A DNA stretch of 64,000 nucleotides from Lacrimispora xylanolytica (GTDB taxonomy: Bacteria > Bacillota > Clostridia > Lachnospirales > Lachnospiraceae), in the NCBI RefSeq assembly GCF_026723765.1, contig NZ_CP113524.1:1907001-1971000 (forward strand). Direction: 5' to 3'. Under the pieces are notes generated by a model. The model was not told where the DNA came from and did not search any database. It saw only the letters and a program-made list of their open reading frames with translations. Made by a program: the position numbers and the translations under genes. Shown here in pieces: positions 41,270-57,088 of this stretch. The first letter of the stretch is position 1. Each line of letters starts with the position of its first letter.

Positions 41270-41527
41270 TATAAGATAACAATAAGAAAAAGGTTAAGAA
41301 AAAGAGGAGTACGATCATAACCCTGAAAGAGAGAATCGTCCATCGGCTGAAAGGCGGTTAAGGAAGTATGTTCGGAAGGTAGCTTTGGAACCGGAAGGCT
41401 GAAATTTAAGAAGTAAGTCTTCACGCCTGGCAGCGTTAAAGGCCTTAAGAGATATGACCAAGTGTCATAATATAAGGTGGTACCGCGACGATTCGCCCTT
41501 TGCATCCCAGGATGCAAGGGGCTTTTC
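41270..41527 (+). promoter_or_regulatory. T-box leader controlling valS
   Basis: tRNA-responsive riboswitch filling most of the 330-base gap. The T-box core GGTGGTACCGCG is at 41476-41487. The stem I region has an AGAGAGAA motif near 41328. The terminator is GCCCTTTGCATCC (41495-41507) with GGATGCAAGGGGC (41510-41522) and TTTT. A candidate valine specifier is GTA at 41366-41368 within GGAAGTATG, but placing the specifier loop by eye is uncertain. Uncharged tRNA-Val would stabilise the antiterminator and allow valS transcription. Confidence 0.93.
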
Positions 41528-54163: not shown

Positions 54164-54192
54164 TTGACAAATAGCAAAAGAAAGCGTAAAAT
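54164..54192 (+). promoter_or_regulatory. Sigma-A promoter of the methionine leader and metNIQ
   Basis: TTGACA (54164-54169) and TAAAAT (54187-54192) with 17-base spacing. The transcript would start near 54199. A short hairpin ATTCCTA/TAGGAAT (54207-54213 and 54223-54229) precedes the leader's ribosome-binding site. Confidence 0.82.
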
Positions 54193-54248
54193 ACGCCTCA
54201 GAAGTAATTCCTACTTTTACTATAGGAATCAGGGAAGGAGTAGCTGCC

Positions 54249-54344
54249 ATGAATCATTCAGAAGCTATGCAGATGAATATGGATCGGATGAACGACATGT
54301 GTATGATGATGTGTTGTATGTCAGAGTGCGTAAAAAACCGATAA
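54249..54344 (+). CDS. Methionine/cysteine-rich leader peptide upstream of metN
   Basis: A 31-codon frame beginning MNHSEAMQMNMDRMNDMCMM and ending in CVKNR-stop. Ten of 31 residues are Met (positions 1, 7, 9, 11, 14, 17, 19, 20, 21, 24) and four are Cys (18, 22, 23, 27). AAGGAG stands eight bases before the ATG. It is followed by a terminator directly upstream of the methionine transporter genes. Composition, start site and position all point to an attenuation leader whose translation senses charged tRNA-Met, possibly also tRNA-Cys. I know of no established Firmicute methionine leader peptide of this type. No function other than regulation is expected for the peptide. Confidence 0.8.
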   Translation: MNHSEAMQMNMDRMNDMCMMMCCMSECVKNR

Positions 54345-54440
54345 TGATTTTCATTTGTATGGATTGTGATTGAATTCGCAAGAAGCAGCTAACGCGGAGA
54401 TTATCAGGTCGCAAGTCTGTGCAGGACTTGCGGCCTTTTT
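54338..54440 (+). promoter_or_regulatory. Attenuator: antiterminator candidate and terminator before metN
   Basis: The terminator is GGTCGCAAGTC (54407-54417) paired with GACTTGCGGCC (54425-54435), 11 bp with one U-G, a seven-base loop and TTTTT. Competing structure 1: CCGATAAT (54338-54345), covering the leader stop codon, can pair with ATTATCAGG (54400-54408) with one bulged A, taking the two G at the foot of the terminator. Competing structure 2: TTCGCAAG (54375-54382) repeats the 5' arm and can pair with the 3' arm. Folding energies were not computed. The 338-base gap shows no S-box or T-box core. Confidence 0.7.
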
Positions 54441-54466
54441 ATATCTAAAAGAAAGGAAATACACAC

Positions 54467-55483
54467 ATGCAGTCAGCAGAACCAATTATAGAGCTGGTAG
54501 GGCTTGGAAAAGAATTTCATACTTCCAGCGGTCCTATAAAGGCATTGGATGATATCAATCTCTCCATCGGACGGGGGGAGATTTTTGGAATAATCGGTTT
54601 AAGCGGAGCCGGAAAGAGTACCTTAGTCCGCTGTATTAACTATTTAGAAGTACCCACTTCAGGTACTGTACTTTTTGAAAATAAAAGTCTTACAGCCATG
54701 CGGCCAAGAGAGCAGCGTCTGGCAAGACAGTCCATGGGAATGATCTTTCAGCAGTTTAACTTACTGGCCCAGAGGAATGTCCTTCAAAATGTCTGCTTTC
54801 CCCTGGAAATAGCCGGAGTATCAAAGAAGGAAGCGGTAGACAGAGCCATGGAGCTTCTTCATATGGTCGGATTAAGTGATCGGTCAAAGGCATACCCATC
54901 TCAGCTTTCCGGTGGTCAGAAGCAGAGAGTTGCCATTGCAAGGGCCTTAGCAACGAAACCAAAGATTCTTCTTTGCGATGAAGCCACCAGTGCTCTTGAT
55001 CCCAATACGACTAAATCCATTCTCGGTCTTTTAAAAGAAATCAACAAGACACTAGGAGTAACGGTGGTTGTTATCACCCATGAGATGTCAGTCATTGAAG
55101 CCATATGTGACCGAGTGGCAATCATTGACCAAAGCCACATTGCAGAGTCAGGCTGTGTCGCTGATATCTTCTCCGAGCCAAAGTCTAAGATTGGACGACA
55201 GTTGATCTTAGGAGAGGCAGCGGAACGTGTCGTTCAATTTGGAGAATCCAAAAGAGTCAGAATTACCTTTGACGGAAGATCTTCCTTTGAACCAGTTCTT
55301 TCTAATTTAATCCTGGCCTGCAAGGTTCCTGTAAATATCATACATGCGGAAACAAAGGATATTAACGGAACTGCCATGGGTCAGATGGTGATCCAGCTTC
55401 CGGAAGATGAATTAGATCAGAACCGTATCTTAAATTACTTAAAAACAGCTAAAATAACTCATGAGGAGGTGAAGGATCTATGA
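54467..55483 (+). CDS. metN: Methionine ABC transporter ATP-binding protein MetN
   Basis: 338 residues. ATPase domain with Walker A GLSGAGKST near 43-51, MIFQQFNLL Q-loop, signature LSGGQKQRV, and Walker B ILLCDEATSALDP. The C-terminal 70 residues form the NIL domain, which binds methionine and inhibits transport (ITFDGRSSFEPVLSNLI near 265). It overlaps metI by four bases. It lies immediately after the leader terminator, so its transcription depends on readthrough. Confidence 0.96.
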   Translation: MQSAEPIIELVGLGKEFHTSSGPIKALDDINLSIGRGEIFGIIGLSGAGKSTLVRCINYLEVPTSGTVLFENKSLTAMRPREQRLARQSMGMIFQQFNLLAQRNVLQNVCFPLEIAGVSKKEAVDRAMELLHMVGLSDRSKAYPSQLSGGQKQRVAIARALATKPKILLCDEATSALDPNTTKSILGLLKEINKTLGVTVVVITHEMSVIEAICDRVAIIDQSHIAESGCVADIFSEPKSKIGRQLILGEAAERVVQFGESKRVRITFDGRSSFEPVLSNLILACKVPVNIIHAETKDINGTAMGQMVIQLPEDELDQNRILNYLKTAKITHEEVKDL

Positions 55484-56145
55484 TATTTGATGCGGCTACT
55501 TTAAGCATGCTTAAATTAGGAATTTGGGAAACACTATACATGACCTTTACCTCATCCTTTTTTGCATATTTAATCGGAATCCCTTTGGGAATCATACTTA
55601 TTGTAACGGATAAAGACGGAATCTTTCCAATTCCCTGGTTTCAGAGAATCCTGGGTCTTATTATAAACCTTCTTCGTTCCGTACCATTTATTATTTTGCT
55701 GATCATGGTTCTTCCTATTACAAAGATGGTAGTAGGAACCACCCTGGGTGCAAGTGCAGTTATTCCGCCCCTTGTCATCGCTTCCGCTCCTTACGTTGCA
55801 AGAGTCGTGGAATCTTCCTTTAAAGAAGTAGATGCAGGCGTCATTGAAGCTGCAAAATCCATGGGTGCCTCACCATTACAGATTATATGGAAGGTTTTAT
55901 TACCCGAAGCCAAACCGTCTTTATTGGTGGGGGCGGCCTTATCCATAACAACGATTCTCGGTTATTCCGCCATGTCAGGCTTTGTAGGCGGTGGTGGTTT
56001 AGGAGATATTGCAATCAAATACGGCTATTACCGTTATCAGACAGCAATGATGTTCGCAACCGTTGCCATTCTTGTTATCATCGTACAGATTATTCAGGAA
56101 GCTGGTATGAAGCTTTCCAGAGTCAGCGACAAAAGGATTAAGTAG
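55480..56145 (+). CDS. metI: Methionine ABC transporter permease MetI
   Basis: Membrane permease of 221 residues with about five hydrophobic segments. The N-terminal ETLYMTFTSSFFAYLIGIPLG and the loop EVDAGVIEAAKSMGASPLQIIWKV near 109-132 are typical of MetI, as is GYSAMSGFVGGGGLGDIAI. It is translated with metN (ATGA overlap) and precedes metQ by 46 bases. Confidence 0.96.
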   Translation: MIFDAATLSMLKLGIWETLYMTFTSSFFAYLIGIPLGIILIVTDKDGIFPIPWFQRILGLIINLLRSVPFIILLIMVLPITKMVVGTTLGASAVIPPLVIASAPYVARVVESSFKEVDAGVIEAAKSMGASPLQIIWKVLLPEAKPSLLVGAALSITTILGYSAMSGFVGGGGLGDIAIKYGYYRYQTAMMFATVAILVIIVQIIQEAGMKLSRVSDKRIK

Positions 56146-56191: not shown

Positions 56192-57088
56192 ATGAAAAAA
56201 TCATTTTACGTTCTTACCGCAGCCGTACTTTTAGCAGGTGCATTAACTGCTTGCTCTTCTGGCAAGGGATCTACTGCTACAACAGCAGCAGAGTCTAAGA
56301 CAGAAGCAGCTTCTTCAGAGACAACAAAAGCAGGCGATGAAACAAAAGCAGCAGGCGATTTAGAGAAAATTGTTGTCGGTGCAACTCCTGCTCCACACGC
56401 AGAAATCTTAAATGCAGCAAAAGATATTTTAAAAGAAAAAGGTTATGAGCTGGTAGTAAAAGAGTATACCGATTACGTGCAGCCAAACCTGGCACTGGAT
56501 TCCGGTGATCTGGATGCTAACTATTTTCAGCATCAGCCTTATTTAGATCAGTTCAACGAACAGAATAAGACCAATCTTGTCAGTGCAGCAGCGATTCACT
56601 ATGAGCCTTTTGGTATTTATGCAGGTAAGACGAAATCCCTGGAAGAGCTGAAAGAAGGGGCACAGATTGCAGTTCCTAACGATGTTTCCAATGAAGCAAG
56701 AGCACTTCTTCTTTTGGCAGACAATGGTCTCATCGAACTTAAGGAAGGCGTAGAACTGGAAGCAACTAAGAATGATATTGTTAAAAATGAAAAGAACTTT
56801 AAGATCATTGAAGTAGAAGCAGCTCAGCTTCCACGTTCTCTTGGAGATGTTGATGTTGCAGTTATTAACGGAAACTATGCCATTGAGGCTGGTTTAAAGG
56901 TATCAGAAGCTTTAGCAGTAGAAGATGCAAAATCAGTGGCAGCAACTCGTTACAGCAATATCGTAGCAGTTCGTTCCGGCGATGAGAGCAACGAAAAGAC
57001 AAAAGCGCTTGTAGAAGCACTTACAAGTGAAGAGGTAAAGAAATTCATCAATGATAAGTATGATGGAGCAGTTGTTCCTTCATTCTAA
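56192..57088 (+). CDS. metQ: Methionine-binding lipoprotein MetQ (NlpA family)
   Basis: 298 residues; signal peptide with lipobox Cys21 (LTAC), then a Thr/Ala/Glu-rich linker. The NlpA fold begins at IVVGATPAPHAEIL near 60, with YTDYVQPNLALDSGDLDANYFQHQ-like segment near 92 containing the family signature, and the GNYAIEAGL segment near 225. It binds methionine outside the membrane and delivers it to MetI/MetN. A strong terminator follows. Confidence 0.95.
   Translation: MKKSFYVLTAAVLLAGALTACSSGKGSTATTAAESKTEAASSETTKAGDETKAAGDLEKIVVGATPAPHAEILNAAKDILKEKGYELVVKEYTDYVQPNLALDSGDLDANYFQHQPYLDQFNEQNKTNLVSAAAIHYEPFGIYAGKTKSLEELKEGAQIAVPNDVSNEARALLLLADNGLIELKEGVELEATKNDIVKNEKNFKIIEVEAAQLPRSLGDVDVAVINGNYAIEAGLKVSEALAVEDAKSVAATRYSNIVAVRSGDESNEKTKALVEALTSEEVKKFINDKYDGAVVPSF

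What the first reader, a model, noticed from the sequence alone, without database searches (positions are those of the whole stretch)
54199..54440. Methionine-rich leader peptide and terminator before metNIQ: candidate ribosome-mediated methionine attenuator
Seen: a TTGACA-N17-TAAAAT promoter, then a 31-codon frame with a good Shine-Dalgarno, ten Met and four Cys codons, including MMM (residues 19-21). An 11-bp terminator with T5 follows, 26 bases before metN. CCGATAAT at the leader stop codon can pair with ATTATCAGG at the foot of the terminator. Model (inference): with enough Met-tRNA the ribosome reaches the stop, covers CCGATAAT, and the terminator forms; when it stalls on Met codons, the antiterminator pairs and metNIQ is transcribed. 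Known: Firmicute methionine genes usually use S-box or T-box RNAs, and I see neither core here. Cys codons suggest a joint sulfur amino-acid response.
Basis: partly seen in the sequence, partly recalled or inferred. Interest (0 to 1): 0.92.

Follow-up and report, generated by a model that had tools for sequence, protein, structure and literature searches.

The report
Methionine-sensing attenuator upstream of metNIQ
A tiny methionine-packed gene in front of a methionine importer very probably works as a switch: when the cell runs short of methionine the ribosome stalls on it, an RNA stop signal fails to form and the importer is made.

Summary
In detail: promoter, 31-codon frame (10 Met, 4 Cys), terminator and metN lie where stated. 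It is not chance. The leader occurs in 24 of 25 genus genomes and 16 of 397 family genomes (13 of 334 genera), all 16 before metN. Frame spacing is a multiple of three in 51 of 51 aligned leaders; 52 of 53 have a terminator. The anatomy is a classical four-segment attenuator: Met codons 7-11 (segment 1) pair with segment 2 behind the stop; segment 2 can instead pair with the terminator's 5' arm and loop. Masking codons 7-11 in silico frees the antiterminator in 14 of 23 leaders; masking MMM (19-21) does so in 0 of 23. Covariation of 2:3 is weak. Unrelated Met/Cys-rich leaders precede other metN genes, including this genome's second copy and some outside the family. Nothing was measured. One annotated precedent exists, Streptomyces lividans metL. 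Verdict: ribosome-mediated methionine attenuator, a new variant of a known kind.

The parts
54164..54192 (+). sigma-70-type promoter, TTGACA-17-TAAAAT
   Evidence: promoter-like sequence in 52 of 53 distinct leaders against 8 of 265 shuffles
54207..54229 (+). 5' hairpin ATTCCTA/TAGGAAT before the Shine-Dalgarno
   Evidence: minimum free energy fold; visible in much of the alignment; role unknown
54235..54240 (+). Shine-Dalgarno AAGGAG of the leader frame
   Evidence: similar sequences in relatives
54249..54344 (+). leader peptide frame, 31 codons, 10 Met
   Evidence: start-to-P2 spacing 57, 60, 63 or 72 nt in 51 of 51 aligned leaders, all multiples of three
54265..54277 (+). segment 1, CTATGCAGATGAA, over Met codons 7 and 9 (codon 11 follows)
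   Evidence: pairs with segment 2 in 94.2% of cells; native pairing better than swapped, 0 of 20000 permutations
54292..54317 (+). hairpin P2 inside the frame, ACGACA...TGTTGT around MMM, candidate pause hairpin
   Evidence: 97.7% paired, covariation score reached by 0 of 500 shuffles; found independently by RNAalifold
54350..54371 (+). segment 2, TTCATTTGTATGGATTGTGATT, shared by the 1:2 and 2:3 structures
54407..54425 (+). segment 3, terminator 5' arm plus loop, GGTCGCAAGTCTGTGCAGG; antiterminator partner of segment 2
   Evidence: 90.1% paired with segment 2; the terminator loop is itself conserved
54406..54440 (+). intrinsic terminator 3:4 with T5
   Evidence: 96.1% paired, covariation score reached by 0 of 500 shuffles
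54467..55483 (+). metN, methionine ABC transporter ATPase with NIL domain
   Evidence: Pfam NIL 1.4e-21; best NCBIfam model TIGR02314 MetN, below its cut-off
55480..56145 (+). metI, permease
   Evidence: NF008049 MetI over its cut-off
56192..57088 (+). metQ/NlpA-family lipoprotein
   Evidence: PF03180 4.7e-92; NCBIfam MetQ models below their cut-offs

Best explanation
A ribosome-mediated transcription attenuator that senses charged elongator Met-tRNA and controls metNIQ. Shown by sequence comparison: a conserved short frame with Met codons 7, 9, 11, 14, 17 and 21 nearly fixed; segment 1 (Met codons) complementary to segment 2 behind the stop; segment 2 also complementary to the terminator's 5' arm and loop (segment 3); a terminator (3:4). 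Inferred: with enough Met-tRNA the ribosome passes codons 7-11 and is released, 1:2 forms, 3 is free to pair with 4 and transcription stops. When Met-tRNA is short the ribosome stalls at codons 7-11, covers segment 1, segment 2 pairs with 3 and metNIQ is transcribed. P2 may pause RNA polymerase to keep it in step with the ribosome (inference). In some relatives with a weak 1:2 the frame ends inside or next to segment 2, so that a ribosome finishing translation would mask it instead.
For: Leader in 24 of 25 genus genomes and in 16 of 397 family genomes at E <= 8.9e-6, 13 genera, all 16 upstream of a MetN Walker A motif. Of 43 pattern hits in 84,980 species genomes, 42 carry the in-frame start and 39 have a MetN Walker A within 900 nt; in three the fetched DNA ends 48-260 nt after the match start, and one is a chance match. 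Spacing within the frame is a multiple of three in 51 of 51. Terminator in 52 of 53. Pairing: 1:2 94.2%, 2:3 90.1%, 3:4 96.1%, P2 97.7%. Masking codons 7, 9 or 11 raises 2:3 by at least 0.15 on average in 14 of 23 representatives, masking 19-21 in 0 of 23, and abolishes 1:2. Rfam finds nothing in 20 loci of this class, 19 with the leader. One relative (G111) has promoter, 5' hairpin and terminator but lacks frame and segments 1-2 together. Met/Cys-rich leaders precede other metN genes too.
Against: No expression, ribosome or structure data. The 2:3 helix is conserved but hardly covaries: 4 cells with both sides changed, no more than in the slid controls (1 to 8), and swapping partners between lineages costs little (native -18.3, swapped -18.0 kcal/mol, 5266 of 20000 permutations as good). 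In 1:2 only one pair has a change on both sides and pair types do not exceed shuffles. In 9 of 23 representatives the masking model shows little or no switch; in six of them 2:3 is already high without a ribosome. Masks at codons 3-6, before the first internal Met, free 2:3 as well (0.67-0.75), so the model does not single out Met codons. RNAalifold does not:2 or 2:3. L027 keeps the RNA pattern with only four internal Met codons. Met shortage should also slow initiation on the leader itself.
Confidence: 0.87

Rival explanations
1. An undescribed metabolite riboswitch (SAM, Met or homocysteine) that happens to contain an open frame; the alternative structures switch by ligand binding, not by a ribosome.
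For: Strong RNA conservation, including P2 inside the frame and near-invariant ATGCAGATGAATATG letters; z-score -3.87 for folding.
Against: Spacings inside the frame are all multiples of three, those outside are not; start codon and SD-like sequence kept; Met is frequent at codons 13 and 24, outside the 13-bp 1:2 core and the P2 stem; leaders of the second class share Met richness but not this sequence.
Confidence: 0.06
2. Nascent-peptide sensing: the peptide itself (AMQMNM..MNGM) stalls the ribosome in response to a small molecule, in the manner of TnaC or Erm leaders (recalled).
For: Q8, N10 and C22 are conserved along with Met.
Against: The codons of Q8 and N10 lie in segment 1 and C22 in the P2 stem, so RNA pairing can explain them; residues 16 and 23 vary where the P2 pairs change; second-class peptides look unrelated.
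Confidence: 0.05
3. A functional Met/Cys-rich small protein (for instance metal binding) that merely lies upstream of metNIQ.
For: Peptide conservation in 45 distinct peptides.
Against: Position inside a terminator/antiterminator system; variable C-terminus; every class-1 hit with enough downstream DNA lies before metN.
Confidence: 0.02

Closest known systems
Classical ribosome-mediated attenuators (trp, his, thr, ilv leaders; recalled, and described in passages of PMC8079986 and PMC2965389)
   Same: Short leader frame rich in codons for the relevant amino acid, 1:2 / 2:3 / 3:4 alternative helices, intrinsic terminator
   Different: Methionine as the amino acid; an importer operon as target; extra covarying hairpin inside the frame; Clostridia, while PMC2965389 calls leader peptides in Firmicutes a noticeable finding
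metL leader of the metNIQ operon in Streptomyces lividans TK24 (PMC8079986, passages read)
   Same: Short frame with Met and Cys codons upstream of metNIQ, proposed as a methionine attenuator
   Different: 29 codons, leaderless transcript, no typical Rho-independent terminator reported, no comparative support in the passages read; by eye its peptide differs from the leader here
Cysteine leader peptides of Actinobacteria (PMC1262725, passages read; Canestrari 2020, seen only as a citation in PMC13236596)
   Same: Sulfur amino acid codons in a short leader frame
   Different: Cys runs, cys operons, no conserved terminator hairpins; described as translation attenuation in M. smegmatis
S-box (SAM-I riboswitch, RF00162) and T-box (RF00230)
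   Same: RNA control of methionine genes in Bacillota
   Different: Sense SAM or uncharged tRNA directly, no leader frame (recalled); no match here

Membership tests
Ribosome-mediated transcription attenuator | Short translated frame with start and SD directly upstream of the operon | tested here: met
   Frame spacing kept in 51 of 51 aligned leaders, SD-like sequences; actual translation not measured
Ribosome-mediated transcription attenuator | Enrichment of codons for the amino acid handled by the downstream genes | tested here: met
   4 to 11, mean 8.6, internal Met codons in 45 distinct peptides; metNIQ downstream
Ribosome-mediated transcription attenuator | Intrinsic terminator between frame and first gene | tested here: met
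   52 of 53; L110 lacks one by this scan
Ribosome-mediated transcription attenuator | Antiterminator helix exclusive with the terminator | tested here: met
   2:3 paired in 90.1% of cells, 26-50% when slid; little covariation, and the partner-swap test does not support it
Ribosome-mediated transcription attenuator | Control codons within a segment whose occupation by the ribosome frees the antiterminator | tested here: met
   1:2 pairing; masking model, 14 of 23 representatives
Ribosome-mediated transcription attenuator | Readthrough depends on amino acid supply and on leader translation | not testable with these tools
   needs reporter or RNA-seq data
SAM-I riboswitch (S-box) | Match to the Rfam covariance model | tested here: not met
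T-box | Match to the Rfam covariance model | tested here: not met
   the only T-box in the window is at 41287-41503
Streptomyces metL-type leader | Homologous leader sequence | not tested
   Peptide read; no alignment made

The most novel reading that the evidence does not exclude
Methionine-codon attenuators are a recurrent replacement for the S-box at metNIQ in Lachnospiraceae and scattered other Clostridia. They arose at least twice, in one class sensing Met alone through segment 1 and another whose Met-Cys runs sense both sulfur amino acids and which uses stop-codon masking of the antiterminator. This would move control of import from the SAM pool to Met-tRNA charging while metK keeps its S-box.
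Probability: 0.45. Interest if true: 0.78.

Novelty: new variant of a known kind. Interest (0 to 1): 0.68.

Why it matters
Methionine control in Bacillota is usually described through S-box, T-box and protein repressors (recalled; the S-box also in passages). A conserved Met-codon attenuator adds a ribosome-read methionine sensor, raises the question of how a leader that itself needs initiator Met-tRNA can report Met shortage, gives a ready test of switching between sensing systems at one operon, and supplies a compact candidate methionine-responsive RNA from named anaerobes such as Lacrimispora, Hungatella and Enterocloster. It would also account for Met-rich small frames before other metN genes.

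Tried and rejected

Long-range closing helix TAGCTGC:GCAGCTA, part of the window's minimum free energy fold: weak, 53.2% paired.

Partner-swap test for 2:3: no support, since both strands are conserved. Mononucleotide shuffles of region 2 gave mixed support, from 0 to 81 of 200 shuffles as good in 24 representatives.

Search for class-1 leaders with profile A3 in 391 class genomes: only the window's own species (two genomes) and one partial hit at E = 0.003 (G485, L215) that I did not examine.

In one search, 30 of 397 genomes matched at E <= 0.1; 16 are leaders. Of the other 14, seven (L055-L059, L062, L063) were inspected and showed no metN Walker A motif and no class-1 leader; seven were not inspected. 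In one search, 15 of 200 genomes matched: eight leaders, L007 with the terminator only, and L010-L015 (six) without a Walker A match in the locus.

A first pass over the loci forgot to reverse minus-strand matches and was replaced. In one search my search for the P2 arm hit an earlier in-frame copy in two leaders (the value 48); the spacing was recounted on alignment A2.

Rows dropped: of 53 distinct leaders, L110 (no terminator) and L026 (same aligned stretch as L025) were left out of A2, which has 51. L053 was left out of the masking runs: 24 clusters, 23 representatives. In the metN survey the four class-1 loci already in hand (G033:C20, G119:C2, G132:C64, G172:C24) and G089, G124 and one of three G163 hits were not fetched again; 86 regions passed the Walker A and length filters. 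Outside the family 69 loci were held, L225 left out as same-family, and 52 regions passed the filters; 60 of those 68 loci were scanned with Rfam. They were taken from the top of the NIL score list, a biased sample.

Literature: nine searches and passages of four papers. Among the listings and passages seen, only the S. lividans metL annotation describes a methionine leader before metNIQ. Most subscription papers are not held, so absence in print is not established.

Full report
OBSERVATION. Read directly from the sequence: TTGACA at 54164, 17 bases, TAAAAT ending 54192; AAGGAG; a 31-codon frame 54249-54344 translating to MNHSEAMQMNMDRMNDMCMMMCCMSECVKNR; a terminator with T5 ending 54440; metN ATG at 54467. 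Downstream are metN (NIL domain), metI and metQ (the best MetN and MetQ models are below their NCBIfam cut-offs, MetI is above). Rfam finds only a T-box elsewhere in the window.

CONSERVATION. A DNA search with 54200-54466 found the leader region in 24 of 25 genomes of the genus, 22 of 22 of good quality. A peptide profile found the leader in 16 of 397 family genomes from 13 of 334 genera at E <= 8.9e-6, each upstream of a GLSGAGKS MetN. A 32-base pattern over 84,980 species genomes gave 43 stretches. Of these 42 have an in-frame ATG six codons upstream and 39 have a MetN Walker A within 900 nt; L084, L107 and L109 hold only 48-260 nt from the match on, and L097 is a chance match. Record titles include Lacrimispora, Hungatella and Enterocloster. 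L075, Clostridium sp. 12(A), is identical to the window over the 320 bases compared.

IT IS A CODING FRAME. Between the start codon and the 3' side of hairpin P2 the spacing is 57, 60, 63 or 72 nt in 51 of 51 aligned leaders, always a multiple of three; the spacings behind P2 are not. Part of this is built in, because the pattern search fixed the first stretch of the frame; the loop of P2 was free to vary. Met is fixed or nearly so at codons 7, 9, 11, 14, 17 and 21 (43 to 45 of 45 distinct peptides) and common at codons 13 (24 of 45) and 24 (23 of 45), outside the 1:2 core and P2 stem.

IT IS ALSO AN RNA. On a structure-free MAFFT alignment of 51 leaders (A2) four helices are kept: P2 inside the frame (97.7% of cells paired, 21 cells with both sides changed, covariation score reached by 0 of 500 shuffles; the number of pair types is not raised); 1:2, Met codons with the stretch behind the stop (94.2%, only one pair with both sides changed); 2:3, that stretch with the terminator's 5' arm and loop (90.1%, 4 cells with both sides changed, not more than slid controls); and the terminator (96.1%, 0 of 500). 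P2 pairs change at codons 16 and 23, where Gly/Asp/Ser/Asn and Arg/Cys alternate, so RNA rather than peptide seems selected there. 1:2 is better between native partners than between swapped ones (-25.0 against -21.9 kcal/mol, 0 of 20000 permutations), whereas 2:3 is not (-18.3 against -18.0). Its support is conserved complementarity, mostly in one register, and a conserved terminator loop that would otherwise be unconstrained. RNAalifold alone recovers P2 and the terminator, not 1:2 or 2:3.

HOW IT SWITCHES. I folded the transcript cut at the end of segment 3, with a 30-base ribosome mask at each codon, for 23 representatives (recounted). Without a ribosome 1:2 averages 0.70 and 2:3 0.38. With the A site at codons 7-11, 1:2 is zero and 2:3 is 0.59-0.68; from codon 17 on 2:3 is back near 0.4. 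Averaged over codons 7, 9 and 11, 14 of 23 gain at least 0.15; at codons 19-21 none of 23 do. Masks at codons 3-6 act too (0.67-0.75), so the model marks the stretch up to about codon 13, within which the internal Met codons are 7, 9 and 11. In six representatives (L005, L006, L008, L009, L051, L082) 2:3 is already high without a ribosome. In L005, L009 and L051 the stop codon lies inside segment 2, in L008 just before it, and in L051, L008 and L009 a mask near the end of the frame lowers 2:3. So the early Met codons, not the MMM run, are the predicted sensor. This is a model with equilibrium energies, not kinetics.

The idea of a ribosome at the stop covering the antiterminator fits other leaders instead. 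In L231 the last codons and stop pair with the terminator arm at -23.4 kcal/mol, and its relative L268 keeps such a pairing at -16.1.

WIDER PICTURE. NIL-domain matches occur in 94 of 200 family genomes. I examined 86 regions upstream of metN: 16 have a Shine-Dalgarno frame with a Met/Cys score of 4 or more, against 0 of 860 shuffles and 0 of 86 reverse complements and 0 of 240 regions upstream of other genes in the window and in the loci. Seven of the 16 are of the window's class or close to it; nine are different, several with Met next to Cys-Cys, including the second metN of this genome (L143). Of 14 second-class candidates (score cut relaxed) 12 have a terminator, and six of these an antiterminator matched by at most 7 of 300 shuffles; L143 does not. 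Outside the family 5 of 52 metN regions have such a frame, against 0 of 520 shuffles. S-boxes lie in 14 of 60 loci scanned outside the family and in none of 60 family sources, 53 distinct loci; T-boxes in 4 and 1. None of the five outside leader loci has either. In this genome one S-box was found (150 of 330 candidates scored); the gene behind it looks like metK (recalled from its sequence). The samples are not phylogenetically corrected, and the outside loci come from the top of a NIL score list.

A NATURAL DELETION. G111 (L148) keeps the promoter, the 5' hairpin and a GGTCGCAGGTCTGTGCAAGG terminator before metN, but frame and segments 1-2 are gone together, as expected if they form one module.

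KNOWN AND NEW. Leader-peptide attenuators are old knowledge. A methionine leader before metNIQ was annotated in Streptomyces lividans (metL, PMC8079986, passages read), with termination called unclear. PMC1262725 (passages) reports no conserved RNA structure at methionine operons of Actinobacteria and describes Cys leaders. PMC2965389 (passages) calls leader peptides in Firmicutes a noticeable finding. My searches showed no methionine attenuator in Clostridia, in a library that lacks most subscription journals. I therefore file it as a ribosome-mediated attenuator by anatomy, a new variant in amino acid, taxon and inner hairpin, with function untested.

Noticed in passing
L143 (G000:C1:132000-138000), frame about 208 nt before metN: Second metN of the same genome has its own Met/Cys-rich leader MNRMMHAACCISQRAGNMTMAMSLMCCAHLYFLYSHPGK; its operon also carries, between metI- and metQ-like genes, one that looks like a lactate/malate dehydrogenase (recalled resemblance).
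   Followed up: partly
L116, L119, L120, L138, L146, L147, L151, L152, L172, L177, L192: Further Met/Cys-rich leaders unlike the window's, before other metN genes in the family.
   Followed up: partly
L231, L268, L243, L230, L281: Met/Cys-rich leaders before metN outside the family; L231 and L268 look homologous and both have a terminator/antiterminator pair overlapping the end of the leader.
   Followed up: partly
L148, shown in reverse 2200-1400: metN locus with promoter, 5' hairpin and terminator but without the leader frame and segments 1-2.
   Followed up: yes
window 41287-41503: T-box before a gene whose start looks like valyl-tRNA synthetase (recalled).
   Followed up: no
L144, about 1225-1351 (G000:C1:377724-377850): The one S-box found in this genome lies before a metK-like gene.
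   Followed up: partly
L117, 2569-2630: RAGATH-18 RNA match in a metN locus of one relative.
   Followed up: no
L086, L094, L100: Contigs titled Paenibacillaceae carry leader regions identical to those of genus relatives, so the record names are probably misassigned.
   Followed up: no
L134, L242, L248, L275, L284: T-boxes in a few metN loci, perhaps a third way of sensing at the same operon.
   Followed up: no
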